IMG/VR virus record: IMGVR_UViG_3300011113_000105
Coordinates: 1-59,655 of that record
Strand: one strand, 5' to 3'
DNA: 59,655 nt
From: a virus
Shown here: positions 19,840 through 57,390 of the stretch, piece after piece
Numbering within the stretch: position 1 is the stretch's first letter
Layout: each line of letters begins with the position of its first letter
The notes under the pieces: generated by a model
Databases searched by the model: none
What the model saw: only the letters and a program-made list of their open reading frames with translations
What the model was told of the DNA's origin: nothing
Made by a program: the position numbers and the translations under genes

Positions 19840-20038
19840 GGCTCCGTACGACGAGCCGACGTGGCTGTTCCCGTACTCAGGCATGAGTATCGGGGACAGC
19901 TTTTTTATCCCAACTATGAAGCCAGCCTACATGACGTACGTCATCGATACGTCCGCGAAGAAGTACGGCATCAAGGTCAAGATATTCACGACAACCGAGG
20001 ACGGTGTCCTCGGTGTCCGTGCGTGGCGGATTACTTAG
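19817..20038 (+). CDS. small protein, 73 residues, end of early region
   Basis: The start lies 23 bases inside the PrimPol gene. The product has a Pro/Tyr-rich N-terminus and a strand-rich C-terminus (KYGIKVKIFTTTEDG). No family is recognised. Its stop overlaps the stop of the convergent giant gene by 8 bases. Confidence 0.65.
   Translation: MSKKNPSEAPYDEPTWLFPYSGMSIGDSFFIPTMKPAYMTYVIDTSAKKYGIKVKIFTTTEDGVLGVRAWRIT
19994..20014. repeat. 9-bp perfect inverted repeat at convergent junction
   Basis: ACCGAGGAC and GTCCTCGGT pair perfectly around a GGT loop, within the last codons of the + strand gene and 17 bases from the end of the - strand giant gene. There is no T-run on either side, so it is not a standard terminator, but it is placed where transcripts from both sides meet. 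Confidence 0.6.
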
Positions 20039-23000
20039 TGTTTTCCTTGATCTCTTCAAACGTCTCAAGAATCTGCCGCTTGATCGTGTTCTGAATCTTC
20101 ACGATCTCTTCGAGTTGCGCTTTGCGCTCTCCAATCGACAGACTAGTGTCAGCGCGCACTTTGTTGGCTGCTTCACGCATCAAGCGCAGAGGGCCGTTGA
20201 CCTCATGGTTGTACGCCTCGACCAACGCGTACTTGTACTCGTTGTTCTCCATGAACCTGTCCAACAGTTCAGGCTTGTTCTTGAGTGAATTGATTTGGCG
20301 TTCGTAGCCCTTGATCTCGTTCTCGGCCCTGCTGAACTCCCGTGCGTCCACGTTGGATTTGCCGCCGATGAAGCTGCTCAGCAATAGAGTGTCGTTTTTG
20401 ACGTCGAACTGTTTATCGGACAGTACAAGTGCGCCGATGTTGACGCCCGTGGAGAGCATCTTGGCCCATCCATCGAGATAGTTGCTGGCGAAGAAGTACA
20501 GCGTGTTGGGGCTGATGTCCACTTCACCCGTCGTCGCGTCGAATAGCGCACGGGTAGCCATCTTGTACATCTCGGGGATGTTGTCGCCGCCCGTGTAGGC
20601 ATCGCCGTAGCGTGACTGACGGTTGTTGTAGATTTCTCTGCCCAGACCGTCGATGTTCATCACGTACTCGAAGAACGGACGAGCAGCGGACGGCGTAACG
20701 GAATCAAGCGCAAACGCAGGGAAGTTATCCAGCGGGCTGATGCGCGAGAACGGCAGCGGCACGAACGAGTCGAGGCCAATCGTCACGATGTTCGACAGCG
20801 CATCGCCGAGGGTCGCACGGCCCATGACAGCACCAGCCACCTGAGCGCCAGCGGCTGCGAAAGCGCCCGGCCCGAAACCCCACGGAATCTGCAAGAACTT
20901 GTCAGAGCCAGGGATCGGGAACCGAGCGTAACGGGTCCAACGCGCCATGTCATCGGTGGCCACACGGTTGCGTCCCTCATCGTCATCGCCGCTGAGCATC
21001 ATGGCGATCATGAAAGTCGCCACGCCCATGCCTGCCAGACCGAGCGTAGTGATACGCGCCGCGCGCTGCTTCTCTTTCATCGCAGCCACAGCGTTGTCGA
21101 TGTCTTGTTTGGTACGCCCCTTGACGCCAGCCTTGGCTTCTGCCTCCGCTTCAGCGCGGAACGCCGCCTCATCAAAACCGAGCGCAGGAGCAAGTGCATC
21201 GATAGCGCGCACCGCGCCCGTTGCAGCAGGACGGAAGAACATGAACAACGCGCCCATTGCTTTGCCGTACTTGCCGACCTGCTCAAAGTTGGCGAGGTTC
21301 TTGGAATACTCAACGGCTTTTGCCTTGGCTTCCTCATCGGACATGCCACGGGCAATGAACTCGTCCTTCATCACACGATACGTTGACGTGCGCGCAGAAA
21401 TTTCAAAAATGTCGTTGTAGGCATCAAAGAACCCTGTGATCTGGTCCTTGGTCTTGAGGATGCCTGAGCGCCCAACTTCCTTGACGAGATTATCGAGCGC
21501 ACCCTTGGCAGCAATGCCCTGGAGATACGAAACACGACCGCCCAGTATGATGTACTCCACAATGTCGCGGTAATACTTTTCCTGCTGATTTAAGTCTTTG
21601 TACGGTTTGGTGCCGCCAGCAAGACGCTCAATTTCTTTAAACTTGCCCTTCTCATACAGATTCAACAGATTACCTGCGCGGTACAAACCGCCTTGCGCTA
21701 CGTCAGCAGACACGGCAGTGATCAAGCGCCCAGCAACGGTGGGGCCAAGTTCAGCACTGATGATTCCAGCGTTTGTGAACGTGTCGCGCACAAAGTTCAT
21801 AGGCGCAAACGCGGGGTTGAAGCGCGTATGCACTTGCCCGAGGCCGCTGGTGAAGCCGTTCACGAAGTCAAGAATCGGGCTGCTCTTCCTCCAAGTGCGC
21901 CGAATGGCTTCATTCTGCTTTTCGTCGTTAATCTGATAGACCTCAATCGTCCCATCGTTGTTGTAATGGAAGATTTTTTTAGGGCCGCCAAACTCTTCCT
22001 TTTTCTGGCCCTTCAGATAACGATCCTCAAACTTGATCGTGCCGACTTTTTCACCGTTAATGATCTTGTCGTTGATGGCATTTTTGATAGCCAGGGTCAA
22101 ATCCCTGCGGCCTGCGCGCATCGCAGCGGTGGCACCGTCAGCAAGGGTCTGCAATAGTGGGTTTTCGGATTCCGACTGACGCCCCTCAAACGTGTTTTGG
22201 TCATCTTGCAGTTCGCCACCAATGTACTGCGAGTCGAGGTTCAAGACTTCATCGTGCTGAGTGCGCCCAGGCTTGCCTTTGAACGGGATGTAGTTTTTGT
22301 AGCCGTAGAAGTCAACGACGTTCTGGACGGGCTCAGACCAGTAGTGCGACGCGGCGTTGAGCGCGGCGGTCTTTTTCTGAACAGCCTGAACAGCATCAAC
22401 TACGGCATTGATCTCGTTGGCTAGCGCGGGCTTGTCAAACAAGTCCTTGATGCGCTTGATTTCTTCCGGTTTGCGGTTAGCGATGACGTTGTATTCAGCG
22501 TCATTAATGTCGGTCTTTTTAGCAAGTATCTTGGGGTCTATCGACTTGTCCATGTACTGCATGTTGGCCACACGATTGCCGTAAGCGTCCTTTATGAATT
22601 TGCCATTAGCGTCTTTAGCAAACACAAATTCGTCAATTAACTGTCGCAGAGCTTTGTTCCGTTGCTCACGCTGCTGCTCAGGCAGACCTGAAGGCTGAGA
22701 CAGAATCTCAAGAACTTTTTCCCGCCAAGCGTACGGAGACAGTGCCAATGGATTGCCCTGGGCGTCAGTGAACCCGGCAACCGTGTACTTGGACTGCTTG
22801 TCCAGCGGCACATTCCGCAGGAACAGCACCTCGCGGCGCTCAGGCTCGTGACGTGCCTCAAGGATCAAATGCAGATCAGCAAGTGCTTCTTCAATAGTCC
22901 GACCGGCAGCCTGCGCGTAGCGTTCAACGGCGGCATCTACCGCCTTGGCCAGCGGAGAGATGTGACGTGCGTACAAGTCAACAGCCATACCAGTTGAACG

Positions 23001-26000
23001 GCTGATCTGGCCATAGACATCATTGAGCCCTTGGCCCACGCGCTTGAGCACACGGAACAACTCCGCGCGCTCAGTTAGCCGCTTGATGATGCGACGATCG
23101 TTTTGAAAGTCACTAGCCAGCCAATTAAGTCCTTCTTTGGTAAACAGTCTACGGATGATGGCCTTGGCGCCACGCTGTTTGAGTTCAACTTCACTGCGGA
23201 GTTCTTCTTCCGTTTTCTGTTGAACCGGAGGAACAGGCGGGGCTTGAACGGTGGTGGGGGCAGTGGCAGCGAGTGACGCACCAATGCTTTTCTTGCCAGC
23301 AAGCTGCCTGATGTTGCCTTCTGGTGCGGCGAGCAAGAACTGAAACGCAGCGGCAGTCTCAAGCAGAAGATTGCCTTTGTACCCTGGCTCCGACAGGATT
23401 TCCCGCTTGAGGTTCGTGATGCCGCCCTTGGACGTCAGGCGCTTTTCTTTTTCGATCTGCTCTTTTGTAGGGCGGTAGCCCATCTCGCTGAGGTCTTTTT
23501 CAACGGTCTCAGTGGTGTCAAACGCTTCTGTTTCAGGCGTGAATTCACGCGCAGCTTCAGCACGTGTTGCACCTTCGTCAGTTTTTTCTTTGTCGTAGCG
23601 CTCAACAATCAGGCCAGTCTCGGGGTCTATGACTTCAACTGGGCCACGTCCTTCTACCTCTTGTTTTTCCGGTACAAGAGTCTCTTTGACTTCTTCGCCT
23701 CTTTCTTTCTTACGCGCTTTGGCAGCGTTGAGCTTCGCTTCTTCTTCGCGGAGCTGCTCATCCGTCTTTTTGGTGACGCCAGAACGCACAACGACCCGGC
23801 CAGTCTTGGGGTCTATGACTTCGATTGGAACAAGAATAGTTGTGCGAATCTTGCTAGGCGTGAACAGTTTGTACAACTGCGCCAGCGTATCCGTGAAGTA
23901 GTCCCACGCCGTCTTGAACATGACGTCGTAGTCAAAGCGCCCAAGTTCACGGCTTTCCCTGACCGCAGCAGAGAGTTCAACTTCCTTCTTGGTAGCGCGT
24001 GCGGCAGGCTCAAGCTGTATCCGAGACAACTCGTACTGGAAGTCCATGTCGGTCATCGCATAAGCAATGAACTCGTACATGTTCTCGAACGCATTTGGAT
24101 ACTTGGAGCCAATCCTGCTCTTGGCCAGAGCAGCGACGTTGATCAGGTGTTCGACAGCCCGACGCGTGCTCTCGTCCAGTTTGGACGGATCAAGGTAGAA
24201 CTGATGGATGATCTTGACTGTTGCTGCGTGCGTCAGTTCGTGCAGAACAGTTGCTTCATCAAATCCGTTTTGCCCGATGAAAATCGTGTTGGTATCAGCG
24301 TCGTACCGGCCAACCTCGTCAAACACCATGTTCGGGTCATACACGACCTTCACATTCAGCGCGAACTCACGCATCGGGCCACTGCGTACGCTCAACAGTT
24401 TGGTGGCAAGATTCTTGAAGACTTCAGCCGATACCTTCTTGCGTTCGCGACGCAACACACGGTCATACGAACTCATCAGCGCGCTGATGTAGGTTTCGCG
24501 CTTTGGCTTCGGTAGAGTGCCATTTGCACTCGTGCTCAAGTAATCCAGCACGCCTTCAATGTTGCCCTTGAAAAGCATACTGAGGACTTTTGGCGGCAAC
24601 AGTGCGCCCTTACCTGCGGGCTGCGCTTCGCGCTCACGTCTAGCCTCTTCAATCTGCTGCTCTTTGACCGTACGTTCTTCAGCGGAAAGTTCGTCACGTG
24701 CCTGCTTTTGCGCAAGTTCCTTCTGAACCTGCTTCTTCACGGCGTTGAACGCCAAAAACTGTTCAGCAGCAGAATCAGTTTTGTTCAGTTGAGTGAACAG
24801 CCGCTTGCTTTCTTCGGACAGCGTGTTCCAGGCAGGGAAGTTATAGGACAGCCCGCTCCTACGGCTGAATGCATCTCGCTCGCGGGTGTAACTCTCTTGT
24901 GCCCTAACTTTGCTGATTTCTCCCGCACGATCTTCCGGTGTGGCGGCACGACTCTCAGAACGCTTCTTCTGAAGATAGTCAGATAGAGCAATCGCCGCTT
25001 GGTCATGCTCTACGATCGTGTTTCTGTTGATGTTGTTCTGAAAGTAGACGCGTCGCTCGTCGTCAGTCAACTCCCTGAACGCTGGCAGTTTTTCGTCTTC
25101 TTCGGCAGACTCGTTGTACGCTTCACGCGTCTCTTCGTAGAGATCACGTTGCTCCTGTGGGGGAAGATATTTCTGTTCCTCTTTGAGTTGCTGCGCAGCA
25201 ACTACAGGCGCCTCAATTGCGGTCAGTGGTCTTGTTTCTACATCAACCTGTACTTCTAATTCTTTTTGTATTTTTGCTGCTTCTTTGACGCGCGCAGCAA
25301 GTTCACGAGAAGTCTCGTTTTTATTACGTTTTAGTCCTAATGATTCCGCCAAGCTATCGACAAGTTTATCGAGCTTGATTTGCTCTTCTGTACGCCTTGC
25401 TGTGCCAGCAGACGGCAAGCCATCGTCACCAAACAGTGAATCTATTTGGTCAATAATTGATTGTGACTTTGTGCCTGCTGCACCGGTAGGGGGTCCAGCA
25501 GGAGGCGTAGGAGGAGTTGGGGGCGCAGGCGGCTTGGGAGGCGGGGGCGGTGTGGGTGCTCCGGGCGGAGTTACTGTAGTTTGTGTTCCGCCTGCTCCTG
25601 GAGGAGTCGCTGGAGCGCCCGCTCCAATATCACCCACTCCACCGGGCTGAGTTCCTGCAACTCCTTCGGCAACTCCAGCCGCAGGGGGCTGTGCAGAAAT
25701 CTGAATGCCTGCTCGACCTGCTCCTTCGACAAATGCTCCAACATCTTGTGCTCCTTGTGTAGCCGTCGCGGTAGCCGCATCGATTTCTGCTTTTAATTTG
25801 TTGTACTGTTTTTTGAGTCTGAGCGACCTGAAAAAATCTGGACGACTAAGTTGGTCGCCCTTCGCTTCAATCTCTTTGAGTTTTTGCTCTACCGTAGCAA
25901 ATTCAGCTTGCTTGGCGGTGAGTTCTTCAGGAGACAGTTTGACAGCAGGCGTCTCAGGCGCACGCTTGGGCATCTCATCCGTAACAGAGCCCGTTTCAAC

Positions 26001-27098
26001 TTCGCCAGGAGCAGGCGGTGCTTTCGGTTCAGCGCGGCCAAATGCAACATCCGTAGCAGCGGTGATACCCGCACCGCCAAAGCCGCCCTTCAGGCCAGCG
26101 TTGATGAATCGCTCAAAGTTCTTCTCACTGAAGAACTGCTTGTTCTGGTCAACGAACTTCTCAGCCGCTGCGCTGGACATCTCCTGCAACGCTTCCGTTG
26201 CGCCTTCCGTAGCAAACCCCTTGAGCGCACCGACTCCGGCGCGCTTGTACCACGCACCGATGAGCGCATCTCTGGTCACACCACTGATGTCTGCTTTGCG
26301 CAGAATGTTGATGGGCGTGATCGCGTCCAGCACTGCGTTGAACGAACCCGCGACGAGCGCCGCACCGATGTCCTGTTTGCCAGTCTCTTCGTAAATGTTC
26401 TGGTAAACGTCAGGAATGTTTTGTACTGCTGAACCTGTTACAGCACCAGCTACTTCGTACTTGAGCGCCGTTTTGCGCGCAGCATCAATGCCTTCCTTCA
26501 GCGCCGTTTCACGGATTGCCGCAAGGGTTTCTTTCTCGATGCCGTACGCGCCTGTCTGGGCGACTGAACGCGCTGCTTGTTTGGTCAGTTCGCGCTTCGC
26601 CGCCGCTTCAGCGGCTTGCATTGCCGCAGCCGTGGCCGGGCGCGCTACAACTGCCGCCGCACCGCCAGTCAAAAGGCTTGGAATGATTGACGGGATTGCC
26701 TCAGCAATCGCTTCCTTGATGTACGTTACAGCGTCGCCAACGCCCTTGATGTCCTTGTAGGAAGGAACTTCTGCGGGGTACAGGCGCTCAGTTTCCTTCT
26801 GGTACTCAGCCGCCTCTTGCATCTGGCGGCGTGCATAGTCCTCTGCACCAATCATCTTGCCCAGCATGGCTGGGCCGACATCGGTAACAAGAGAAGCAAT
26901 CCCGCGTCCACCACGCATGACGGACGGGAAAAAGCCAGTCTGCCCTTTGGGTTCGGGCGGCGCTACAGCTTCGCGCGCTTTTGGCGCTGGAGCAAAAAAG
27001 TTCCTGGCGTAGAGGTCTACATCGCTTTGAGTAAGACCTGCGGGACCCTCGAAGAGATGTACTTTTCCTTCGGGGTCCTTGAACTGATACTTTGCCAC
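20031..27098 (-). CDS. giant polyvalent/internal virion protein, HELTH metallopeptidase, LPD38-like
   Basis: At 2355 residues this is the largest gene. The start is GTG at 27,098, 3 bases after the upstream stop. An N-terminal FEGPAGLTQSDVDLYAR segment is of the kind seen in phage ejection proteins. Ala/Gly-rich amphipathic helices follow. A Pro-rich low-complexity linker lies at about 499-540. A zincin motif HELTH (H953, E954, H957) sits in an ATVLHELTHAAT context. A long helical part leads to a C-terminal region (about 1730-2100) that resembles LPD38 of large polyvalent proteins. Such proteins are thought to enter the host with the DNA. Domain limits are rough. Confidence 0.85.
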   Translation of the reverse strand: MAKYQFKDPEGKVHLFEGPAGLTQSDVDLYARNFFAPAPKAREAVAPPEPKGQTGFFPSVMRGGRGIASLVTDVGPAMLGKMIGAEDYARRQMQEAAEYQKETERLYPAEVPSYKDIKGVGDAVTYIKEAIAEAIPSIIPSLLTGGAAAVVARPATAAAMQAAEAAAKRELTKQAARSVAQTGAYGIEKETLAAIRETALKEGIDAARKTALKYEVAGAVTGSAVQNIPDVYQNIYEETGKQDIGAALVAGSFNAVLDAITPINILRKADISGVTRDALIGAWYKRAGVGALKGFATEGATEALQEMSSAAAEKFVDQNKQFFSEKNFERFINAGLKGGFGGAGITAATDVAFGRAEPKAPPAPGEVETGSVTDEMPKRAPETPAVKLSPEELTAKQAEFATVEQKLKEIEAKGDQLSRPDFFRSLRLKKQYNKLKAEIDAATATATQGAQDVGAFVEGAGRAGIQISAQPPAAGVAEGVAGTQPGGVGDIGAGAPATPPGAGGTQTTVTPPGAPTPPPPPKPPAPPTPPTPPAGPPTGAAGTKSQSIIDQIDSLFGDDGLPSAGTARRTEEQIKLDKLVDSLAESLGLKRNKNETSRELAARVKEAAKIQKELEVQVDVETRPLTAIEAPVVAAQQLKEEQKYLPPQEQRDLYEETREAYNESAEEDEKLPAFRELTDDERRVYFQNNINRNTIVEHDQAAIALSDYLQKKRSESRAATPEDRAGEISKVRAQESYTRERDAFSRRSGLSYNFPAWNTLSEESKRLFTQLNKTDSAAEQFLAFNAVKKQVQKELAQKQARDELSAEERTVKEQQIEEARREREAQPAGKGALLPPKVLSMLFKGNIEGVLDYLSTSANGTLPKPKRETYISALMSSYDRVLRRERKKVSAEVFKNLATKLLSVRSGPMREFALNVKVVYDPNMVFDEVGRYDADTNTIFIGQNGFDEATVLHELTHAATVKIIHQFYLDPSKLDESTRRAVEHLINVAALAKSRIGSKYPNAFENMYEFIAYAMTDMDFQYELSRIQLEPAARATKKEVELSAAVRESRELGRFDYDVMFKTAWDYFTDTLAQLYKLFTPSKIRTTILVPIEVIDPKTGRVVVRSGVTKKTDEQLREEEAKLNAAKARKKERGEEVKETLVPEKQEVEGRGPVEVIDPETGLIVERYDKEKTDEGATRAEAAREFTPETEAFDTTETVEKDLSEMGYRPTKEQIEKEKRLTSKGGITNLKREILSEPGYKGNLLLETAAAFQFLLAAPEGNIRQLAGKKSIGASLAATAPTTVQAPPVPPVQQKTEEELRSEVELKQRGAKAIIRRLFTKEGLNWLASDFQNDRRIIKRLTERAELFRVLKRVGQGLNDVYGQISRSTGMAVDLYARHISPLAKAVDAAVERYAQAAGRTIEEALADLHLILEARHEPERREVLFLRNVPLDKQSKYTVAGFTDAQGNPLALSPYAWREKVLEILSQPSGLPEQQREQRNKALRQLIDEFVFAKDANGKFIKDAYGNRVANMQYMDKSIDPKILAKKTDINDAEYNVIANRKPEEIKRIKDLFDKPALANEINAVVDAVQAVQKKTAALNAASHYWSEPVQNVVDFYGYKNYIPFKGKPGRTQHDEVLNLDSQYIGGELQDDQNTFEGRQSESENPLLQTLADGATAAMRAGRRDLTLAIKNAINDKIINGEKVGTIKFEDRYLKGQKKEEFGGPKKIFHYNNDGTIEVYQINDEKQNEAIRRTWRKSSPILDFVNGFTSGLGQVHTRFNPAFAPMNFVRDTFTNAGIISAELGPTVAGRLITAVSADVAQGGLYRAGNLLNLYEKGKFKEIERLAGGTKPYKDLNQQEKYYRDIVEYIILGGRVSYLQGIAAKGALDNLVKEVGRSGILKTKDQITGFFDAYNDIFEISARTSTYRVMKDEFIARGMSDEEAKAKAVEYSKNLANFEQVGKYGKAMGALFMFFRPAATGAVRAIDALAPALGFDEAAFRAEAEAEAKAGVKGRTKQDIDNAVAAMKEKQRAARITTLGLAGMGVATFMIAMMLSGDDDEGRNRVATDDMARWTRYARFPIPGSDKFLQIPWGFGPGAFAAAGAQVAGAVMGRATLGDALSNIVTIGLDSFVPLPFSRISPLDNFPAFALDSVTPSAARPFFEYVMNIDGLGREIYNNRQSRYGDAYTGGDNIPEMYKMATRALFDATTGEVDISPNTLYFFASNYLDGWAKMLSTGVNIGALVLSDKQFDVKNDTLLLSSFIGGKSNVDAREFSRAENEIKGYERQINSLKNKPELLDRFMENNEYKYALVEAYNHEVNGPLRLMREAANKVRADTSLSIGERKAQLEEIVKIQNTIKRQILETFEEIKENTK

Positions 27099-27101: not shown

Positions 27102-29789
27102 TTAACCTTCGTCAGATTGCCCACCAAGCGTACCGAGATACTGGAGTTGTGGCAACACTGGGGCCAGCGTCTGCTCGTAGAGTTCCTTTTGATACGCCGC
27201 AAGGCTCGGGTACTCTTTCTTAAGTTTGGCACCGGTGTACGGATCGTTCCACGCCTTGAGCGCCTGTTGCTGAGACTGCCGTGCAATTGCACCCTTGACT
27301 TGATAAAGCGTGCGCTCCAATCCTGTATTGCCCGCCCTTGCGCGATCTGCTGCAATGCGCTCACGCGCTCTGTTAGCCCGGATTTGTTCGTCAAGCGTTC
27401 TGCGCTGAATGTCAGCCTGCTCTGCCGCCTTGATGAGCCCAAGCGCCGTTTGCTTGTCGCCACGACCGGCCGCAACCTTGGACTGGAGCATCGCCACCTG
27501 CATCTGCTTGCCAAGTCGGTCGTATTCACGAACCATTTTGTCAGTGTCTCTGACCGACTCAGTGATGGCCGGAGCCGCAGCACCAGCAGCGCGAAGTGCA
27601 CCAAAAACACCTTTTCCTGCTCCAACCTGTGAAGCAGCTTTGGCCATTTCAAATCCAAATGCAGAAAGTGCGTTGCGCGTTCTGCTCTCGCCGATTTCCT
27701 TGGACTTGGCCTTGATGTCGTCGATCTGCTCCTGCATCGCCTTGTACAGCGGGGCGTCTTCTTCCTTAAAGAAGTTCAAATACCTTCTAGCTTTGGCGAT
27801 TTCGTCTTCAGGGCTGCTACCAGTTACCTGCGCCATAGCAGTACCGACCGTCGTTGCGGGGTCTGCCTTTTTACCGCCTTTGGGCGCAGCAGGAGCAGGA
27901 ACGGGCGGGCCACCACGTGACGGAACTTTGGCAAGCGCAGCCGCCGCTTCTTTTGCATCAAATTTTTGATACGCAGCGGGAGAACCGCGACCAGACCCAG
28001 TACCAGTAGTAGCCGTGTAGTAGGGATCGGCCTTGAATTTAGCCATCAACTCAGGGTCATTACGCAGCCGTTCTTCATTCGCAGCCGCCCAGTCACGCGC
28101 AACTTTTGCCTTGCGGTATTCCTCCTCGTCACCAAACATGTACGAAAGAGGTCCGGTCTTGCTGCGGATAGGCGCAACTGTTTTTTCGTATTCGACGCCT
28201 GAAGACGGGCGAAGTTTGCCTTTGATGTAGTCAAACACACTAGAGATGTCTTTGCGAAGCGCGGAACCGCCACCGCCGCCTTCATCAATTGCCTCTTCGT
28301 CTGTTACCAAACTCCGGTTATTTTCTTCAGTAGGCTCCGCGAACGACACGATGCCGCCACGCCGCATGCTCTCCTCGGAGGGCAACATCTCCTCCATGTT
28401 TTGAGGCGCAACGCTGGCAAGCCCACGAGAATAGGACGCGGCCTCTGCGCGCTCGCGCAGTTCATCTTGCAGCATCTCGGCCTGCTTCACATCACGGCGG
28501 TCGAGTGCGTTCTTCAGAGCCTGCTGGAGTTGCGCGTTGCTCAGGCGCTTGATCGCGCCTTCGACGTAGTTGTCGCTCGTAACATCTCCACCGTAGGCCA
28601 TGCCCACAGCGCCGCCGTCGGCGTACGAACTGACCGTGCCGCCTTCCTTCTTCATCAGACCGTACGCACCGAGGCCCAGACCAGCCAACGTGCCCAGCGT
28701 GCTGGGCGGCTGCTGATACACAGTCGCACCAGTTTGCATCAGTGGCACGCCACGGATGATGTCGGACATGAAGCCCAACTGCTTGTATGGGTAGTTCTGG
28801 AAGTTGAGGAAGTCCTGATACTGCGCGTTGTAGACGTCCTGTGCACGCTGCTGTTGCTGCTGGCCGTACTGTTGTTGCAGTTGGTTAATCGCCAAGTTCT
28901 GCCCAAACTGCGTCTGCCCTAATCCGCCAAGCTGTTGCGCGGCTTGCAAACCGGTTTGCAACCCCTGAAGGCCCAGACCCGCGCCGTACTGACGTGACTG
29001 CTCGCCCAACTGAGCGGCGGCTTGGTTGTATTGCGCACCGAGACCAGCCTGCTGCATCAACTGACCGTAGCCAAACTGACGCGACTGCTCCGCAGCCTGC
29101 TGCGCCTGCATCCGAGCCTGCTGATTGGCAAGCTGCGCTTGCATCCGTGCCTGCTGTTCGGTGTTGAATTGCTGCGCCGCTTGTTGAAACGCGCCCTGCA
29201 ATCCACGAGACTGGATGTCACCCATCTGCGTGGCGAGGTTGCGCTGCGCTTCGGCATTCTCAATAGCCTGACGCGCACCACCAAACGCACCGGCACGGGC
29301 AAACTGCTGACCGCGCCGAGTACCAGCAATGTCCGCCATGCGCTGAGCTTCACGCTTCTCGATGTCCACCACGTTCTGCATGTAGGGAGACATGTACTGA
29401 CCGAGTGTTCCTTCGCCAGTCAACGATTGCGTGCCAACGCCATAAGCAGTAAAGCCCGTGGGGCGATAGGTATCTACTGGTTTGTAAAAGTTGGCAAACT
29501 GCGACGGCGCGTATTGGTCATAAGCAAGTGCCCGCAACCCAGCGGTTCCTGCCATAGCTGAAGCGTCTGTCAACTGAGGCGCGGCTTCCATCGCCTGAGC
29601 ACCAGCAAACGCCTGCTGTTGCAGCGGGGTGAACTGCGCGAAGCGTTCACCCATGTACTGCTGATACGGGAACTTGGAAAAGTCCGTCAGCGCCTGAGCG
29701 CGACCCAACAGGTCTTGAGCGTACGGTGCAACCTCTGGCGCAAAGCCGACTTGCTGCTGTTGAATCTGGGTCGGAATGAGATCAGCCAT
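27102..29789 (-). CDS. internal virion-type protein, Gln-rich
   Basis: This 895-residue protein has an N-terminal 350 residues very rich in Gln, Ala and Gly with heptad-like helices and repeated EQSRQ(F/Y)G. A Gly-rich patch with SYADGG and MAYGG (about 385-405) follows, then a charged helical C-terminal half. Position between two other giant proteins fits an internal core or ejection protein. AAGGA precedes the ATG at 29,789. It ends 3 bases before the next gene. Confidence 0.78.
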   Translation of the reverse strand: MADLIPTQIQQQQVGFAPEVAPYAQDLLGRAQALTDFSKFPYQQYMGERFAQFTPLQQQAFAGAQAMEAAPQLTDASAMAGTAGLRALAYDQYAPSQFANFYKPVDTYRPTGFTAYGVGTQSLTGEGTLGQYMSPYMQNVVDIEKREAQRMADIAGTRRGQQFARAGAFGGARQAIENAEAQRNLATQMGDIQSRGLQGAFQQAAQQFNTEQQARMQAQLANQQARMQAQQAAEQSRQFGYGQLMQQAGLGAQYNQAAAQLGEQSRQYGAGLGLQGLQTGLQAAQQLGGLGQTQFGQNLAINQLQQQYGQQQQQRAQDVYNAQYQDFLNFQNYPYKQLGFMSDIIRGVPLMQTGATVYQQPPSTLGTLAGLGLGAYGLMKKEGGTVSSYADGGAVGMAYGGDVTSDNYVEGAIKRLSNAQLQQALKNALDRRDVKQAEMLQDELRERAEAASYSRGLASVAPQNMEEMLPSEESMRRGGIVSFAEPTEENNRSLVTDEEAIDEGGGGGSALRKDISSVFDYIKGKLRPSSGVEYEKTVAPIRSKTGPLSYMFGDEEEYRKAKVARDWAAANEERLRNDPELMAKFKADPYYTATTGTGSGRGSPAAYQKFDAKEAAAALAKVPSRGGPPVPAPAAPKGGKKADPATTVGTAMAQVTGSSPEDEIAKARRYLNFFKEEDAPLYKAMQEQIDDIKAKSKEIGESRTRNALSAFGFEMAKAASQVGAGKGVFGALRAAGAAAPAITESVRDTDKMVREYDRLGKQMQVAMLQSKVAAGRGDKQTALGLIKAAEQADIQRRTLDEQIRANRARERIAADRARAGNTGLERTLYQVKGAIARQSQQQALKAWNDPYTGAKLKKEYPSLAAYQKELYEQTLAPVLPQLQYLGTLGGQSDEG

Positions 29790-29798: not shown

Positions 29799-32459
29799 TT
29801 ATGCCGGGAGGTACTTGTCGGCACGGGTGTTCTTGGCCACCTTGCCTTTGCCCATACTCTTGGAGCGAGCGCGCTGCACTCGATCCATCATCGCATACAG
29901 TTTGCGCGCACCAGCTTCGGTTGAACCATTACCCAGTTCAGACACGATGCGGGCGGGCACCACGAACTCGCCATCAGCCAGCCGAGCAGGGCGCTTGCCG
30001 CCGATCGTTGCGGGGATCGAATCCGACACACCATCGCCAGGGCCGCGCAACAGCCGGCCACCATCGGAGTAGCTGCCGAGGTCAAACTGGCCACCACCCG
30101 CAGCGCCGCCGAGAACCGCGAGCGAAGACAAACCGCCACGAGCCATGCGCGGAATATCCTGCGCCATGCCCCCAGAGGCTCCGCCACCACCCTCGTAAGT
30201 AGCGGGCTTGGCCACCAATTCTTCGTAGTACCCCTTGCGCTTCTCAGTGGGCTTGCTACCAAACTCTCTGTAATGAAACTGGACGTACTCTTCCGGCGTC
30301 ATTGTCTTGGCTTGAGGATCAGTCTCGTACGCCTTCTGTACATCAGGGTTGGCGTCAAAATAGAACGCAGCCAGATCAGGATACTGCTTGCCACTGGGGT
30401 CTTTGACGGACGGCACTTCCTTGGGTACGCCCTTGGAAACCGCGTCTTGATTGCCAGTCAAATTAACAGGCTTGAGGTCTTGATAGGTGCTGGGGATGCC
30501 CATGACTTCACGGTACGAACGCATGATCGGCCCACCGCCAGGAACATACGGCTTGATTGGAGCCGGGCCACGACCCATCAAATAATCGTAAATGCCCTGC
30601 ATGCCGGGAGACATGTCAGTAAAACGGAACTCGTTGTACGCAGCGCGCGCCTGCATCTCAGGAATGCCACGACTGTTGGCGAACGCGACAACATCCCGAT
30701 ACATCGCGTTCGGGTTGCTCTTCAGATAGTCACGAATCAGTCCAACCGCTTGGCCCTGTGAATACATCCGATCAGTCGGACGAATATCCGTGATAGTGGG
30801 CATGCGCGTAGCGCCGCCGCCTTGCTCGTACGCAGTCCGCACTTCATTCATCGTCTGCGCTTTGGGCTGGAACGGGGTTCCAATCGTCACATCAGGTTGA
30901 GGCGCAACGTACGGGGGGATGACTGTGTCACCGCCAAAAGTCACATCGGCAGGCGTACTGACCGGAGGCGTAGGCGCTTTTACACCGATGTCCCGAGAAA
31001 TCTGTCTAATTTGGGCTTCAATCTCGGGAAGAGACAAACCAGCACCACCGGCTTGTTTCGGCTTTAGCTGGTTCATCCAATAGTTCAGACCTTCCTGCTC
31101 CACATCCCGGTTCAGGATGTTCCGGTAAAGCTGGTTGATCTGCTGTGCTTGCGGGCTTGTGATTGCCGCATCAGCGTAGCTGTAGCCCGCTGGGGCAGTA
31201 CCGGAGATGATGGCGGCTTTGCTTACATCCACCGGCTCGGCGCTGAAGTTGTACCCGGCAGTGCTCAGGTTCAACGGAGCGGGTTGCGCTACGGCACGAG
31301 CAGCATCGATCTGCTTGGCCAGCATGGGATTGGCAGCACGCACATCCTGCACAACTTGATTGAAATTGCCCAATCCTGAAGTCATCCAATGTTTGATGGC
31401 TTCATCATTTGGGTTCAACTCAGCGAGCGGATTGGCCTTGTACGCAGCCAAAACTTCTTCTCGTGTAGCTTTAGGTGGAGGGGTTCCCCCGTTGGCCATA
31501 CGCACCACGGGTTCGCTTCGCTGAGCAAACGCAAAGTCTTCGTCGTAGGGTGTACCGCCGTCAGCCAAGTGACTCATCAAGCCGCCACCGGCTGCACCGG
31601 GAGGGGGACCGCCGTACAAACTAGCAAACCCACCGCGCTCAACAAACTGTTCAGGCGTATACGAGCCAGCGCGTCGAAGATTGCCGTACTCATCGATTTC
31701 GTACGGGGTAACGCGTGCAGTGGGTGACGTCATCTGAGTGACAGTCTTCGGCATTCTGGACTGCATGTCTTGCGCAGCGGCTATCGGCCCAGCGATACCG
31801 GAAGCTGTTTGGATCGCGCCTTTTGCGCCTCCAAGGGCATCCATAAACGCAGTACGGCCAGCTTCACCTTTTAGGCTTTGAAGCCCAGCCATAGCACGAT
31901 CACTGAAACTGCCGCCAAGACTGCTTCTTGCCGCGTCAGTAGTAGCTTTTTCAATGGCCTCTCGCTGAAGCTGTTTCAAAACTACATCTTTATCCGCGCC
32001 CGTTTCAAGCATTAAACGAGCAACGTCGCCTTCAGCAATAGCCGGAATGCTTGCTCTAGCGCCTTCCACCGCCGCCGAGGTACCCGCACTTGCCAAAGCA
32101 CCAGCGAGATTAGAACCGCCATAAGCACCGAAGCCCGCCATCAGGCCCTTGCCCAAGTCCCCGGTACGCAGAGCTTCAAAGCCGCCAACCGCCAGACCCG
32201 CGCCCAAAGGAGTGCCGAGGAACGCTAGAGAAGTGCCCGCAGTGAGGGGGGCAAGTGCTGCGCCAATAATCGTCGGCAGCAACGCTTTAAGGAAATTTGC
32301 TTCCGGCAGACCCGTCTCAGGGTTGATGGTCAACTCACCACCATTCGCCACTGCCAATTCTTGCAGTCCCCGTACTTCACCGGGCGTCATGTGCACAAGT
32401 ACGGAATCACCGTCACGCCCTTTACTGGCGAGGTGTTGTGCTGCGAGTTGCAGGCTCAT
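29799..32459 (-). CDS. internal virion-type protein with C-terminal LADGEFVVPA motif
   Basis: The 886-residue protein opens with HLASKGRDGDSVLVHMTPGE, and its hydrophobic Ala/Gly-rich stretch at about 60-130 could insert into a membrane. Gly-Gly motifs follow (HLADGG, RMANGG, later RMARGG and SYSDGG). The last 80 residues carry GPGDGVSDSIPATI, RLADGEFVVPARIVSELGNG and a KYLPA end, a signature I know from many aquatic phage virion proteins. It probably belongs to the ejected core with its two neighbours. AAGGGGG precedes the ATG. Confidence 0.8.
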   Translation of the reverse strand: MSLQLAAQHLASKGRDGDSVLVHMTPGEVRGLQELAVANGGELTINPETGLPEANFLKALLPTIIGAALAPLTAGTSLAFLGTPLGAGLAVGGFEALRTGDLGKGLMAGFGAYGGSNLAGALASAGTSAAVEGARASIPAIAEGDVARLMLETGADKDVVLKQLQREAIEKATTDAARSSLGGSFSDRAMAGLQSLKGEAGRTAFMDALGGAKGAIQTASGIAGPIAAAQDMQSRMPKTVTQMTSPTARVTPYEIDEYGNLRRAGSYTPEQFVERGGFASLYGGPPPGAAGGGLMSHLADGGTPYDEDFAFAQRSEPVVRMANGGTPPPKATREEVLAAYKANPLAELNPNDEAIKHWMTSGLGNFNQVVQDVRAANPMLAKQIDAARAVAQPAPLNLSTAGYNFSAEPVDVSKAAIISGTAPAGYSYADAAITSPQAQQINQLYRNILNRDVEQEGLNYWMNQLKPKQAGGAGLSLPEIEAQIRQISRDIGVKAPTPPVSTPADVTFGGDTVIPPYVAPQPDVTIGTPFQPKAQTMNEVRTAYEQGGGATRMPTITDIRPTDRMYSQGQAVGLIRDYLKSNPNAMYRDVVAFANSRGIPEMQARAAYNEFRFTDMSPGMQGIYDYLMGRGPAPIKPYVPGGGPIMRSYREVMGIPSTYQDLKPVNLTGNQDAVSKGVPKEVPSVKDPSGKQYPDLAAFYFDANPDVQKAYETDPQAKTMTPEEYVQFHYREFGSKPTEKRKGYYEELVAKPATYEGGGGASGGMAQDIPRMARGGLSSLAVLGGAAGGGQFDLGSYSDGGRLLRGPGDGVSDSIPATIGGKRPARLADGEFVVPARIVSELGNGSTEAGARKLYAMMDRVQRARSKSMGKGKVAKNTRADKYLPA

Positions 32460-35705: not shown

Positions 35706-36188
35706 CTAGTCCATCAAAGCGCATTCAGCTTGGCGGCGTTTAACCAAGCCGGGAAGTACCTTGCCGCCGCCTCGTGTCCAGAGCATCAACTGCTCCTTTG
35801 CCGCATCCCAGTCTTGGGCGTTGATTTTCCGCCGTAAGGTCGAGGTTTGCAAGCGCCCAACCCCGAGGTTATACGCGAAGTCCACGATGGCGTTGAATTT
35901 GGGCCAGTCGTTTTGGGTCATCGCCAGGGTCAGCAGTATTGGGCACTGCCGCACGACACCGGGAGCGTAGGTGTGGAGCAGTTCAAGTTTGAGCCACTCC
36001 TCTGCCACCTGCCGGGTGATGGGCGGGTCATCCATCGTGACCTTGCGCCCGTCCGGCCTGAACACCGTCCCGTACCCCTGCGTAGGAAATCCAGCGGGGC
36101 AGATATACGGGTAAACCAGACCATCCTGGCCTACCCGTGCAAGACCCTCAAACCGCTTGCAGAGTTCTTCTGCAATGCTGAAGTTCAT
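35706..36188 (-). CDS. endolysin, GH24-type lysozyme
   Basis: The 160-residue protein has catalytic E14 in CKRFEG and T36 in FPTQGYGT, and a later FNAIVDFAYNLGVG, which is the family pattern of phage GH24 muramidases. There is no signal peptide, so a holin must release it. It forms a lysis cassette with the three membrane-protein genes just upstream in the same transcript. The start overlaps the holin-like stop. Confidence 0.9.
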   Translation of the reverse strand: MNFSIAEELCKRFEGLARVGQDGLVYPYICPAGFPTQGYGTVFRPDGRKVTMDDPPITRQVAEEWLKLELLHTYAPGVVRQCPILLTLAMTQNDWPKFNAIVDFAYNLGVGRLQTSTLRRKINAQDWDAAKEQLMLWTRGGGKVLPGLVKRRQAECALMD

Positions 36189-37325: not shown

Positions 37326-37556
37326 TTACTCCAGTATCACCACCGTGTCGGTGTCATCAAAGAACATCATCCGGCCATAGCAGGCGATGTTGTAGTCCTG
37401 CCCGTTGGCGTCCAGTTCAGTCCAAGACCGTACCTCAATCCGCACATGCTTGGCAAGGATTTCCCGCCCGTTCTCAAACACGCGCCAGACATGAAGCATG
37501 GAGCCACGACCCGGTTGTCCTCGTGACTTGTTGAACCGGATCGTGTACTTGTTCAC
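37326..37556 (-). CDS. small protein, 76 residues, unknown
   Basis: This beta-rich soluble protein starts with GTG at 37,556, overlapping the dioxygenase stop (GTGA). It contains RFNKSRGQPGRGS and an HVWRVFENGREILAKHV strand region. I recognise it as a recurring small phage protein without function. It sits between dioxygenase 1 and the lysis cassette. Confidence 0.68.
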   Translation of the reverse strand: MNKYTIRFNKSRGQPGRGSMLHVWRVFENGREILAKHVRIEVRSWTELDANGQDYNIACYGRMMFFDDTDTVVILE

Positions 37557-38143
37557 TTGTAGTTAATGAATTTGGCAATAGAGATTCTGTATGCGCCTTC
37601 TTGCCCCTTCACAGGATTTGCTCCGTGCATAGTGCATCCGTGAAACAAAACCAACCTGTTTGGTTTTGGCTCTATTACTACATCATGCTCTGAAAATATA
37701 AACTCTCCCCCGCCTATATTTCCAATACAGTCAAACCAAACTGCCGATAATATCGAAGCATCGCGGTGTTGGTCATAGTATCCGCCATCGCTATAGTAAT
37801 TAACCAATGTAGTGTCTTTTGACGAGCACCGCAGATGAAGAAACGAGGAGTCTGTAGGTACGATCTGTTCGGCAAAACCTTGGCTAAATACTTTACTGAA
37901 ACCATTTAGTATGTCGGATTTGCTTCTGTCGCTGCTATAAAGGTCATCTAAAAATACGCCATCGCCGTTTTTCTTAAACTCCTTGTTTTCGTATCTTGCG
38001 GCAGATGTAAACTCTGGCTTATTTGCAAAACGCTTTATATCAAGAAGTTCTTTTTGTATTTTTGCGTATTCTTCGGGCGTAAAAAAATTATCCGCAACGA
38101 CATATGTCAGCGAATTTTTTCTCAAGACCCGCAAGTCCATCAT
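37553..38143 (-). CDS. 2OG-Fe(II) dioxygenase 1
   Basis: The 196-residue enzyme has iron ligands H126 and D128 (QHRDAS) and a distal H173 (TMHGANPV), with R186 (AYRISI) for 2-oxoglutarate. The double-stranded beta-helix order fits the prolyl-4-hydroxylase type. Its DNA is clearly richer in A/T than its neighbours, so it may be a recent arrival. It lies three genes downstream of the glycine-rich adhesin in the same transcript. The substrate is unknown. Confidence 0.85.
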   Translation of the reverse strand: MMDLRVLRKNSLTYVVADNFFTPEEYAKIQKELLDIKRFANKPEFTSAARYENKEFKKNGDGVFLDDLYSSDRSKSDILNGFSKVFSQGFAEQIVPTDSSFLHLRCSSKDTTLVNYYSDGGYYDQHRDASILSAVWFDCIGNIGGGEFIFSEHDVVIEPKPNRLVLFHGCTMHGANPVKGQEGAYRISIAKFINYK

Positions 38144-39999: not shown

Positions 40000-40589
40000 T
40001 ATTGGCTCCTTGTACCTGAATCGTACCCATATGCAGGGCGTTTATCTTTGGCGTGGTCTGCATTAGGGCCGTTTTTGTCCACATAATGCAGCATGAACTG
40101 CACATTGAGTTGCCCGTCTTTAAGCGGCTGCCGCCAGTGCGTCACATCACAGCCCAGGTAGATCACAGCATCGCCAGGGTTCAGCACATGTTTTTCGGGG
40201 TCGTTTTGCCCATATTGTGTATAAACCGGGGAAAACTCACCTTTAGTGGCTACATTGATCGTGACACTGACTTCGCAGGCAGGTCGATCAACATGCTGTT
40301 TCAGTTTCTCTCCCGGCTGATAGATGCGAGAGTACGAATATGTCGGGATGAGTTCTCTGCCCGTAGCGTCTTCTACAGATTCCTTACTTGCCTCAAGCAA
40401 AACTTCGATTAAAGGATCGGCGTAATACGCATACCTAGAGGTCGGATCGCCTTCTTTAGCGGCTTCTTTCCACTCGCCCCTACGAATCTTGTTTTCAAAG
40501 TATCTTGAAACAACAGCAATAGTTTGTTCGTCAATAAAATTCCTGACGAGAACGCAGCCGTGTTTTTCAAAGTGTTCTGCATCAGTCAT
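39999..40589 (-). CDS. 2OG-Fe(II) dioxygenase 2
   Basis: The 196-residue enzyme has H99 and D101 (QHVDRPACEVS), then a NPGDAVIYLG segment and distal H151, with MLHYV following. This is a double-stranded beta-helix dioxygenase of the P4H-like kind. Its stop overlaps the ATG of the glycine-rich adhesin (TAATG), so the two are translated together. The tail beyond residue 170 is charged and flexible. Confidence 0.85.
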   Translation of the reverse strand: MTDAEHFEKHGCVLVRNFIDEQTIAVVSRYFENKIRRGEWKEAAKEGDPTSRYAYYADPLIEVLLEASKESVEDATGRELIPTYSYSRIYQPGEKLKQHVDRPACEVSVTINVATKGEFSPVYTQYGQNDPEKHVLNPGDAVIYLGCDVTHWRQPLKDGQLNVQFMLHYVDKNGPNADHAKDKRPAYGYDSGTRSQ

Positions 40590-41178
40590 AGTAAAACCAT
40601 CCTGTCACGATGTACTTTGATGTATTGCCAAGTACCGTATTCCCGCGATGCGTGTGCGTATACGCAGCAGGCCAAATAATCATGGTGTTGGCTTCAGGGC
40701 GCAAACGAAGGCGTTGATACAGAAACTCGGTTTCCCCACCGTCCTGTTCGCCAAGATCGTTTAGGTACAACATGTAAACAAGCACGCGCTCGGCATGTTC
40801 CTTATTACCTTGCTCGGCGTGCCATACATGGTATCCGCCGCCAGGATCAGTACGCTGCATCTTCATGGCCGTACCGTGTATTTTGGCGTCTTTCAATACC
40901 GAAAACTGTTCTGTGTATTGGTCATAACATTGTTGAAGACCATTAAAGAACACGCGAGTAGCGGGCGTATCGTTGAAATCAGCAGCGTTATGAGCGCCAA
41001 AGTTTAGGCCCAACTGCATGTCGTTTTTGCGGTGCTTAGGCGCACCTTCCCCGCGCTGGCGATTTACACCTGCGCCTGACTCAACAAGCCGCTCAAACTC
41101 GTTGATCAAGTGTTGGCAATAACCTTCCGGGTACACATCCCGATAGATGCCAATGAACTCTTTGTATTCGGTGTTCAT
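40582..41178 (-). CDS. 2OG-Fe(II) dioxygenase 3
   Basis: The 198-residue enzyme has GGGYHVWHAE with H120 and E122 as the likely H-x-E iron pair, LYLNDLGEQDGGETEF as the core strand and turn, and THTHRGN with distal H175 or H177. It fits prolyl-4-hydroxylase-like enzymes of the 2OG-FeII_Oxy_3 type. The start is at 41,178, overlapping the preceding stop (ATGA). A longer frame to 41,202 is less likely. It overlaps dioxygenase 2 by 8 bases. Confidence 0.86.
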   Translation of the reverse strand: MNTEYKEFIGIYRDVYPEGYCQHLINEFERLVESGAGVNRQRGEGAPKHRKNDMQLGLNFGAHNAADFNDTPATRVFFNGLQQCYDQYTEQFSVLKDAKIHGTAMKMQRTDPGGGYHVWHAEQGNKEHAERVLVYMLYLNDLGEQDGGETEFLYQRLRLRPEANTMIIWPAAYTHTHRGNTVLGNTSKYIVTGWFYYD

Positions 41179-41735
41179 TTGAAGGGCGGGCCTGAAACCC
41201 AAGCAACAAGGGATTGACGGCTACCGCTTGTCACGGGGGTTACTTGGTGGAGTACATACGAAGGGAATGCTGCCACCAGACCCCGCTGTTTGCGAACGGT
41301 TTGCGGCTGACCACCAGTAGTTACTTGGAGGTTTCCCCCCTCGTACTGGCTCGGGTCGGTCAGTTGAAGTACCAGACTGAGTTTCCGGCTTATGTTTATC
41401 CTGCCCCCATAATCCACATGCCATCCGTACATCCCCTGTTCTGATTGATCGTAGTTGGTCAACTGAATCGGCTCACCAAATCCAGTCAGGTCAAACCGGT
41501 AGTATTGGGCATTGAGAGATGAAGCAATATGCCCCAGTTTCTCAAAAACCCAAGCGGTGTCTTGCGTCTTGTTGAGCCAAGATAACTGAGAGCGCCTGAT
41601 TTTTTTAAGCGCCTCTTGTTCTACACCGCCCCCAACCTGCGCCTGTTGCTCGGCCTTCTGCGCCTGCTCTTGGAGCCAGTTCAGTTCCTGCTCCGTGAAG
41701 CCGCCTTCCCACCAAACAAACGGCTCAACAGGCAT
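41175..41735 (-). CDS. 2OG-Fe(II) dioxygenase 4 (PKHD-type)
   Basis: The 186-residue enzyme has GWHVDYG with H106 and D108, YEGGNLQV, distal H163 (VLHQVTPV) and R173 (SRQSLVAW), a clear PKHD/PiuC-like set. An N-terminal helix of about 50 residues is rich in Glu and Gln. The ATG at 41,735 is chosen because the upstream extension to 42,263 is out-of-frame reading of dioxygenase 5. AAGGAG is about 26 bases upstream, so translation is probably coupled. Confidence 0.88.
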   Translation of the reverse strand: MPVEPFVWWEGGFTEQELNWLQEQAQKAEQQAQVGGGVEQEALKKIRRSQLSWLNKTQDTAWVFEKLGHIASSLNAQYYRFDLTGFGEPIQLTNYDQSEQGMYGWHVDYGGRINISRKLSLVLQLTDPSQYEGGNLQVTTGGQPQTVRKQRGLVAAFPSYVLHQVTPVTSGSRQSLVAWVSGPPFK

Positions 41736-41746
41736 GGCATAAGGCG

Positions 41747-42340
41747 TCAGCAGGTGCTGCACGGGCGCTCCTTGTGTGACACGATGAAGTGAATGCACCG
41801 TGTTGGGGTGTCGGCATTGCTGCCGGTGAGTTGATGCTGCATCCACGAGTTTGCAAACATGACCGACCCCGGCACCATGTTGTTGAAGTGGATGTTGTTG
41901 GTGGCGTTGCTGACCTCTTCGCCCTGCACAAAGTCCAGTTCGATCATGGACTTGTTCATGCGGGTGTCGTGGTAGATAGGATATGCCCCACCTTGAGGCG
42001 TCTCCAAAAAGAACCAACCGCACATTTGGCTGTTCTTGTGGACATGCACATTCGTGCCGCCACCCCGGTTGACCTCCTGCGCCCACAGGCCGGAGAGGTA
42101 GAAGTCGTATCGGTCTACCGCGTAGCCTTGCCCCCGTAAAAGGTCTACGGCTGACAGAAGAATGTAGTTTGCCACTTCCTGCAAGGCAGGCTCGTGCCCA
42201 AGATGCGCGGACTGACACATCGGCCAATCGGGCTTGCGTACCTGATCCAAGTATTGGATGCATGTCGGCAGAACCTTCTCAGCCAAGTCGGGCCGCTCAT
42301 CTCGGTAGACGATTGCCGGGAAGTAGGCAAAGCCTTGCAT
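41747..42340 (-). CDS. 2OG-Fe(II) dioxygenase 5 (2OG-FeII_Oxy_5 type)
   Basis: The 197-residue enzyme has NVHVHKNSQMCGWFFL with H99/H101, a PGSVMFANSWMQHQL segment with distal H169, and R181 in TPTRCIHFIV. This fits the family that uses an H-x-H/N start instead of H-x-D. It is the first dioxygenase of the group in transcription order, just after the small coiled-coil gene, whose stop overlaps its start (TGATG). The other four are clearly different sequences, so simple recent duplication is not the origin. Confidence 0.82.
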   Translation of the reverse strand: MQGFAYFPAIVYRDERPDLAEKVLPTCIQYLDQVRKPDWPMCQSAHLGHEPALQEVANYILLSAVDLLRGQGYAVDRYDFYLSGLWAQEVNRGGGTNVHVHKNSQMCGWFFLETPQGGAYPIYHDTRMNKSMIELDFVQGEEVSNATNNIHFNNMVPGSVMFANSWMQHQLTGSNADTPTRCIHFIVSHKERPCSTC

Positions 42341-51166: not shown

Positions 51167-52078
51167 TCAGGACGAACCCGAAGAACCGAACATTCCCAGC
51201 GGATCAGACCAGCCGAACGAATAACGCTCGCGGGCCTTGTAACGCACGTTACCGGTGTCGAAGTCGCCGTCCATGCTGTTTTGCAGCGGGGTGCGGACGA
51301 AATGCTTCATACCGTTAGGCACGTCCGTGGTCAGGAACCACGCATTGCTGTCGGTCAAGAAGTGGTTAACGGTGTAACCCTCGGGGATTGCACCCATCTG
51401 CTTGATAGCGTTGATGTCGTTATCAGCAGTTGCCACACGCAGTTCGGTGTCCAGCAGACGCTTGGCAACGAACATCAGTGCGGGCGGGATCACCAGCTTC
51501 TTGGGCTTGGCAGCGATCAGCAAGCCACGCTCATCCGTCCAGGCAGCGATCTGAATAACGGCGGCTTCCAGAGAAGTTTCGTTCAGGTCAACCTGCACAG
51601 CGGGCGTGTTGCTGTTGGTGCCACCGCTGACCAGGGGGTGGTCAGTAGCGAACAGGGCCTTGCCGTCGCCACCGGGGTAGCTGGCAGAGAAGCCGTTGTT
51701 CAGCACCGCAGCAGCCTTAACCTGCTTGGTGTAGGCCATTGCACGGGCCAGCGCCTTGGTGTAACGAGCAGACAGGCTGTCGTACAGGTTGTCTTCGATC
51801 GCCTCTTCGGTGATCGAGAAACCCAAAGCGATGGTTTCGTGCGTATAGCGGGTGCTCCAAGCCTCCTGCGCATTGTCATAAGCAATGGCAGAGCCTTCGT
51901 TCTTCACCGGAGCGGCGGAGAAGCCAGACAGCTTGGTTTCCTCTTCAAACGAACGCTCAGAAGTCTCGGTTTCGTAGACTTCCTTGTGCTCTTCGCCGTA
52001 GCGAGCGTACTCCAGACCGAACAGGGCGTTCAGGCCGGGGAGCAGCTCTTTCAGCAGTTGTGCGCGTGAAATAGCCAT
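51167..52078 (-). CDS. major capsid protein, Mu gpT-like
   Basis: The 303-residue protein begins AISRAQLLKELLPGLNALFG and contains ALFATDHPLVSGGTNSN and NHFLTDSNAWFLTTDVPNGM, the pattern of Mu gpT-type major head subunits. It is followed by a strong terminator, preceded by scaffold and a second head protein, and has AAGGAG before the ATG. It should form the HK97-type shell. Confidence 0.88.
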   Translation of the reverse strand: MAISRAQLLKELLPGLNALFGLEYARYGEEHKEVYETETSERSFEEETKLSGFSAAPVKNEGSAIAYDNAQEAWSTRYTHETIALGFSITEEAIEDNLYDSLSARYTKALARAMAYTKQVKAAAVLNNGFSASYPGGDGKALFATDHPLVSGGTNSNTPAVQVDLNETSLEAAVIQIAAWTDERGLLIAAKPKKLVIPPALMFVAKRLLDTELRVATADNDINAIKQMGAIPEGYTVNHFLTDSNAWFLTTDVPNGMKHFVRTPLQNSMDGDFDTGNVRYKARERYSFGWSDPLGMFGSSGSS

Positions 52079-57381: not shown

Positions 57382-57390
57382 GATCAATCC

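What the first reader, a model, noticed from the sequence alone, without database searches (positions are those of the whole stretch)
20031..27098. 2355-residue polyvalent-type protein with HELTH metallopeptidase motif
Seen: one reading frame of 7 kb with an ejection-type N-terminus, a proline-rich linker, HELTH (H953, E954, H957) in a typical zincin context and a C-terminal part that resembles LPD38. Known: large polyvalent proteins of phages and conjugative elements are thought to travel into the host with the DNA and carry mixed effector domains. Inference: a virion-borne protease that may act on host proteins or on virion proteins as soon as it enters the cell.
Basis: partly seen in the sequence, partly recalled or inferred. 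Interest (0 to 1): 0.7.

Follow-up and report, generated by a model that had tools for sequence, protein, structure and literature searches.

The report
Phage ejection protein with zinc-peptidase domain
This uncultured short-tailed-type phage carries a giant cargo protein, probably shot into the bacterium together with its DNA, whose middle is a well-preserved zinc protease domain of the type found in the giant RNA polymerase of phage N4; it is a good new example of a kind already described, and what the protease cuts is unknown in all of them.

Summary
HELTH lies at residues 953-957. It is a real zincin: the model places it on a helix after three strands, and the third ligand is Glu1009 on a later helix. 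In 74 of 74 uncultured relatives found through the C-terminal part alone, H953, E954, H957 and E1009 are kept; among 68 non-identical sequences (median identity 35%) these are the only four invariant residues. The domain is homologous to domain C1 of the phage N4 virion RNA polymerase (solved) and to the largest ejection protein of phiKMV-like, PhiM1, Bcep22/Parlo-like and crAss-like phages. The C-terminal part contains Pfam LPD38 and resembles DarB-like virion proteins; no polymerase or other effector domain was found. Iyer et al. 2017 already described this kind and proposed self-processing or host targets. So: new member of a known kind. Active peptidase very likely; presence in virions likely by homology and gene order; the substrate is open. 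Side result: the region of the PhiM1 ejectosome published as 'endolysin-like' carries this zincin signature.

The parts
20031..27098 (-). whole gene, 2355 codons plus stop, GTG start; giant ejection-type polyvalent protein, last gene of the late operon
26640..26990 (-). residues 37-153, N-terminal region matching a PHROG family of virion structural proteins (phrog_6958)
26637..26702 (-). residues 133-154, hydrophobic Gly/Ala-rich stretch, possible membrane helix
25488..25577 (-). residues 508-537, Pro-rich linker, not conserved in relatives
24474..25181 (-). residues 640-875, helical region before the zincin, conserved within the clade
23844..24473 (-). residues 876-1085, zincin metallopeptidase domain homologous to N4 vRNAP domain C1
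24228..24242 (-). HELTH, residues 953-957: zinc ligands H953 and H957, general base E954
24072..24074 (-). E1009, third zinc ligand (in YEFIAY)
23424..23843 (-). residues 1086-1225, variable linker with two copies of EVIDPxTG
20034..23417 (-). residues 1228-2355, mostly helical C-terminal part of unknown fold, homologous to the C-terminal part of the Parlo and Vibrio 1.205 giant proteins
20439..20948 (-). residues 2051-2220, Pfam LPD38
27102..29789 (-). 895-aa protein directly upstream, weak match to a DNA ejection protein family (phrog_4287, E 1.4e-5); likely second ejection protein
29799..32459 (-). 886-aa protein with DUF4214, same operon; possible third ejection or tail protein

Best explanation
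The gene encodes the largest ejection (cargo) protein of a podovirus-like phage, equivalent in position to T7 gp16 and N4 gp50. Its middle domain is a working zinc metallopeptidase (ligands H953, H957, E1009; base E954) of the N4-vRNAP-C1 type. I think it is packaged uncut, leaves the virion with the DNA, refolds in the envelope or cytoplasm, and there cleaves the ejection proteins themselves, most likely its own chain at the variable linkers, separating the membrane-bound N-terminal part from the C-terminal LPD38 part. Shown here: the domain, the conservation of its metal site, the homologies and the gene order. Inferred from relatives: packaging and ejection. Conjecture: timing and substrate.
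For: Zincin fold in the model (pLDDT mostly 80-94 over the domain; helix, three strands, HELTH helix, later helix with E1009); best PDB match N4 vRNAP C1 (9pnt, Z 6.7, rmsd 3.9, 170 aligned); profile match to the solved phiKMV-like internal virion protein 9sfn (E 2e-17), N4 vRNAP (4e-8) and PhiM1 gp48 8vb2 (7e-6). Catalytic tetrad kept in 74/74 relatives picked without reference to the domain, the sole invariant residues. The same domain sits in chains with an RNAP, with other middle parts, or with no recognised partner enzyme, as expected for a general service function. Homologues are virion proteins: JC1 gp69 by mass spectrometry (PMC9144972); N4 vRNAP is packaged unprocessed (PMC5512222). 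Iyer et al. propose self-processing of polyvalent proteins by this peptidase.
Against: I found no report of cleavage for any member with this clade of zincin; the N4 vRNAP structure paper saw no degradation and discusses C1 without activity. In this protein no second enzyme was found that would need releasing, which weakens the motive for self-processing. Linkers vary so much that no conserved cleavage site is visible. Virion presence is not tested for this uncultured phage.
Confidence: 0.45

Rival explanations
1. Injected effector: the peptidase is delivered to cleave a host protein (for instance a defence, envelope or regulatory protein) at the start of infection; this is one of the first reader's two readings.
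For: Strict conservation of the active site whatever the partner domains; lethal-factor and Pro-Pro endopeptidase zincins appear in the fold list, although weakly (Z about 4 and 3.6); named as a possibility by Iyer et al..
Against: Nothing points to a given host substrate; the domain is spread over phages of very different hosts (Pseudomonas, enterobacteria, Vibrio, gut crAss-like phages), so a single host target would have to be very general.
Confidence: 0.3
2. Head-stage maturation protease: it cleaves head or cargo proteins before or during packaging, as proposed for P1 DdrB.
For: Processing of P1 DdrB before packaging is cited by Iyer et al.; the gene is in the late operon with capsid and portal.
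Against: N4 vRNAP with the same domain is packaged uncut. Whether the window has a separate head maturation protease was not settled.
Confidence: 0.13
3. Not a peptidase: the metal site is a structural or other catalytic device (folding, packaging signal, clasp to the rest of the chain).
For: In N4 the region with this domain is required for encapsidation (PMC5512222), and C1 contacts the RNAP in a complex in which the CTD inhibits it; the N4 authors mention that HExxH also occurs in radical SAM proteins fused to alphaKG-HExxH domains.
Against: E954, the general base and not a metal ligand in zincins, is as invariant as the ligands; a purely structural site would not need it.
Confidence: 0.07
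4. Cell-wall enzyme: the region cuts peptidoglycan during ejection, as implied by the names 'internal virion protein with endolysin domain' and 'peptidoglycan lytic exotransglycosylase' of the phiKMV-like homologues.
For: Names in the annotation and the PhiM1 paper's assignment of TEP 268-528 (PMC11440229).
Against: The signature there is the HExxH...E of zincins, not that of a transglycosylase; no Pfam lysozyme or transglycosylase match in the window protein.
Confidence: 0.05

Closest known systems
Domain C1 of the N4 virion RNA polymerase gp50 (residues 2124-2375; PDB 9pnt, 9pnr)
   Same: Homologous domain: HELVH at 2228 and a following Glu (NEFMAW), matching by profile and fold; giant ejected protein, last of an ejection-gene trio
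   Different: No RNA polymerase in the window protein, none found among the window proteins scanned; the C-terminal profile does not match N4 gp50 by sequence, by fold inconclusive
DarB-like giant proteins of Bcep22-like phages and Serratia phage Parlo
   Same: Zincin and LPD38-type C-terminal part both match Parlo (85 bits; 76 and 28 bits); the JC1 homologue is in virions
   Different: Parlo's is 3764 aa with an extra middle part between the two matching regions and a second HExxH; the window protein lacks it
phiKMV-like internal virion protein (DL62; PDB 9sfn chain G) and PhiM1 tetrameric ejection protein gp48 (8vb2)
   Same: Same zincin with HExxH and Glu in a solved virion ejection protein
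   Different: 1263-1337 aa; the C-terminal profile of the window clade does not match the phiKMV-like protein
Polyvalent-protein MPTase and LPD38 families of Iyer et al. 2017 (PMC5512222)
   Same: HExxH on one helix, Glu on a following helix, three-stranded core; LPD38 restricted to phage-type polyvalent proteins
   Different: No Pfam model covers this zincin clade; which of Iyer's 12 clades it belongs to was not tested

Membership tests
Zincin metallopeptidases (polyvalent MPTase type, Iyer et al. 2017) | HExxH on a helix following a three-stranded sheet | tested here: met
   Model: strands at model residues 278-281, 291-294, 299-302, then helix 309-330 with HELTH
Zincin metallopeptidases (polyvalent MPTase type, Iyer et al. 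2017) | Conserved Glu on a C-terminal helix as third ligand | tested here: met
   E1009 on helix 368-377 of the model; invariant in 74/74 complete relatives; ligand distances were not measured
Zincin metallopeptidases (polyvalent MPTase type, Iyer et al. 2017) | Bound zinc and peptidase activity | not testable with these tools
   needs purified protein
N4 vRNAP C1-type zincin | Sequence and fold homology to N4 gp50 2124-2375 | tested here: met
   PHROG vRNAP profile E 4e-12 at 780-1039; N4 chains E 4e-8 by profile; Z 6.7, first in the list but modest in size
N4-like virion RNA polymerase | Single-subunit RNAP module upstream of the zincin | tested here: not met
   No RNAP family match in the 2355-aa protein; of the vRNAP profile the reported best match lies behind the polymerase module
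Phage-type polyvalent protein | Large multi-domain protein with MPTase and LPD domains | tested here: met
   LPD38 E 1.9e-15 plus the zincin
Phage-type polyvalent protein | Transferred into the host with the DNA | not testable with these tools
   Only by homology to N4 vRNAP and virion-borne DarB-like proteins
T7 gp16-like internal core proteins | Sequence homology to T7 gp16 | tested here: inconclusive
   No significant match of the zincin or C-terminal profiles to T7 gp16; position in the operon is alike

The most novel reading that the evidence does not exclude
One peptidase module with an invariant active site is a shared core part of the largest ejected protein across otherwise unrelated short-tailed phages (phiKMV-like, N4-like, Bcep22/Parlo-like, crAss-like and this large uncultured clade), and does a common, still unknown cleavage step in genome ejection rather than serving a particular partner domain.
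Probability: 0.35. Interest if true: 0.7.

Novelty: new member of a known kind. Interest (0 to 1): 0.38.

Why it matters
The family and the idea of self-processing have been in print since 2017, and the N4 domain has been solved, but I found no report of its activity or substrate. The strict conservation of all four catalytic residues in a protein that lacks the RNA polymerase says the peptidase has a job of its own. Because the domain also sits in laboratory phages such as N4, the question can be tested with a single catalytic mutation. It also suggests a corrected annotation for several solved ejectosome proteins.

Tried and rejected
Pfam, scanned on the region alone in 32 relatives, gives only borderline metallopeptidase matches (SprT-like, M91, DUF6782, astacin, ATLF, M35), none a family assignment. 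PDB by single sequence gave nothing useful. Foldseek alone had no significant PDB match for either model. The C-terminal model has only helix-bundle background matches, so its fold stays unknown; likeness to N4 C2 is neither confirmed nor excluded. The Pro-rich linker as a conserved cleavage site for a Pro-Pro endopeptidase-like enzyme: dropped, since many relatives lack it. T7 gp16 has a HERLH at 559 but does not match the profiles. Relatives fished with the HExxH pattern itself were not counted as evidence of conservation, because the pattern forces it; the C-terminal search replaced it. No relatives were found in the bacterial and archaeal genome collection.

Full report
Observation. The open frame 20031-27098 is on the minus strand, with a GTG start at 27098 three bases after the stop of the upstream gene and a GAAGG-like ribosome site. 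It has 2355 codons and one HExxH, HELTH at 953-957. From the composition, about 0.007 such motifs are expected by chance. Pfam finds LPD38 at 2051-2220 (E 1.9e-15). PHROGs finds a virion structural family at 37-153 and the N4-type virion RNA polymerase profile at 780-1039, matching positions 1983-2211 of 3406, that is, behind the polymerase module.

Surroundings. The window is one virus record of 59655 bases. The minus strand carries terminase (57391-58920), portal (54886-57387), major head protein (51167-52078), tail-type genes, endolysin (35706-36188), two virion structural proteins, then proteins of 886, 895 and 2355 aa, the last gene of the operon. The plus strand carries DNA polymerase, helicase, primase and nuclease genes. 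No RNA polymerase was found among the proteins scanned. This resembles the T7 14-15-16 and N4 52-51-50 ejection-gene order (PMC10925440; N4 record). In 56 of 57 related loci with enough upstream sequence a frame of 384-1391 codons lies directly upstream on the same strand, and in 19 it is recognisably the 895-aa protein.

The zincin. tblastn of the domain against named phages hits the giant ejection-type proteins of very different phages: Schitoviridae vRNAPs, phiKMV-like and Prado-like internal virion proteins, crAss-like phages, Parlo's DarB-like protein and Vibrio 1.205 (loci). All show HExxHA and, some 45 to 90 residues later, a Glu followed by Phe or Leu. Profile scores against these full-length proteins are 85 bits (Parlo), 77 (Vibrio 1.205, PG11 vRNAP), 72 (cr55_1), 64 (DL62), 54-56 (Prado-like, cr116_1) and 33 bits for N4 gp50. 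In the PDB the profile finds 9sfn_G internal virion protein (E 2e-17), N4 vRNAP (4e-8), PhiM1 gp48 8vb2 (7e-6) and 23sg gp10 (4e-4). A profile of phiKMV/Prado-like sequences shows HEAAH plus HEF in PhiM1 gp48 and HELIH plus HEM in 23sg. The PhiM1 paper calls that stretch (268-528) endolysin/exotransglycosidase-like (PMC11440229); the sequence says zincin.

Is the metal site kept? Relatives were fished with two C-terminal patterns that do not touch the zincin. Of 80 loci, 74 hold the whole domain in one frame, and all 74 keep H953, E954, H957 and E1009. The other six do not hold the motif in the same frame: four start at or near the contig end, one (L127, same contig as L023) has the gene split, with HELVHAAT intact in a preceding frame, and one (L143) begins about 300 bases from the contig end. 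In 68 non-identical domains with median pairwise identity 35% these four are the only fully invariant residues. This is the strongest evidence for a working enzyme rather than a relic.

Fold. The model of 640-1100 has mean pLDDT 83. Over the domain: long helix 237-267, strands 278-281, 291-294, 299-302, helix 309-330 (HELTH at 314-318), helix 337-357, helix 368-377 with E1009 at 370. This is the core that Iyer et al. describe. VIA-align puts N4 vRNAP first (Z 6.7, 170 residues, chain 2127-2354, which is C1), then unrelated helix bundles, then lethal factor (about 4) and PPEP-3 (3.6). Z values of this size would not be enough alone; with the sequence match they agree. BFVD matches include internal protein D of a Bordetella phage, a Vibrio phage vRNAP, crAss-like and 'large polyvalent protein' entries.

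The rest. The C-terminal part (1228-2355) matches the C-terminal parts of Vibrio 1.205 (98 bits) and Parlo (76 and 28 bits) and weakly Bcep22-like proteins, but not N4 gp50. Its model (pLDDT 77) has no credible PDB match. No other enzyme was recognised.

Function. Shown: a homologous, strictly conserved zincin in the largest late protein. Inferred: packaging and ejection, from N4 vRNAP (PMC5512222, PMC12633501) and from the virion proteome of JC1 (PMC9144972). Open: the substrate. Iyer et al. proposed self-processing before packaging, in the head or after injection, or host targets, and noted that N4 vRNAP is packaged uncut. I favour cleavage of ejection proteins after ejection, with about 0.45 confidence, over a host target (0.3). 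Finding the domain without RNA polymerase argues that it does not exist only to regulate or release the polymerase.

Novelty. The kind is known: zincin in N4-type giant proteins, LPD38 in phage polyvalent proteins, and the C1 structure. New here are this member, its large uncultured clade, the unbiased conservation test, and the link to solved phiKMV-like and PhiM1 ejection proteins. In the papers searched and read I found no earlier statement of that last link; most subscription papers were not searchable. No relatives were found in the genome collection, so hosts are unknown.

Noticed in passing
37553-38143, 40582-41202 and 41175-42263, minus strand: Three 2OG-Fe(II) oxygenase-like genes within the structural gene region.
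   Followed up: no
L010, L007 and PDB chains 8vb2, 9sfn, 23sg: Ejection proteins named transglycosylase or endolysin in annotation carry the HExxH...Glu zincin signature; the PhiM1 paper's endolysin-like region 268-528 includes it.
   Followed up: partly
23424-23843, minus strand: The linker after the zincin holds two copies of EVIDPxTG (around residues 1094 and 1156), seen otherwise only as one copy in the nearest relative L095.
   Followed up: partly
29799-32459, minus strand: The 886-aa protein of the ejection-gene cluster carries DUF4214 (E 2e-6).
   Followed up: no
L023 and L127 (one contig): The giant gene appears split into a 469-codon and an 1168-codon frame; sequencing error or real break not resolved.
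   Followed up: no
L005, residues 2187 and 2424 of the Vibrio phage PG11 vRNAP; L006, residues 1195 and 2557 of the Parlo protein: A second HExxH occurs in these giant proteins, possibly a second zincin in the chain.
   Followed up: no
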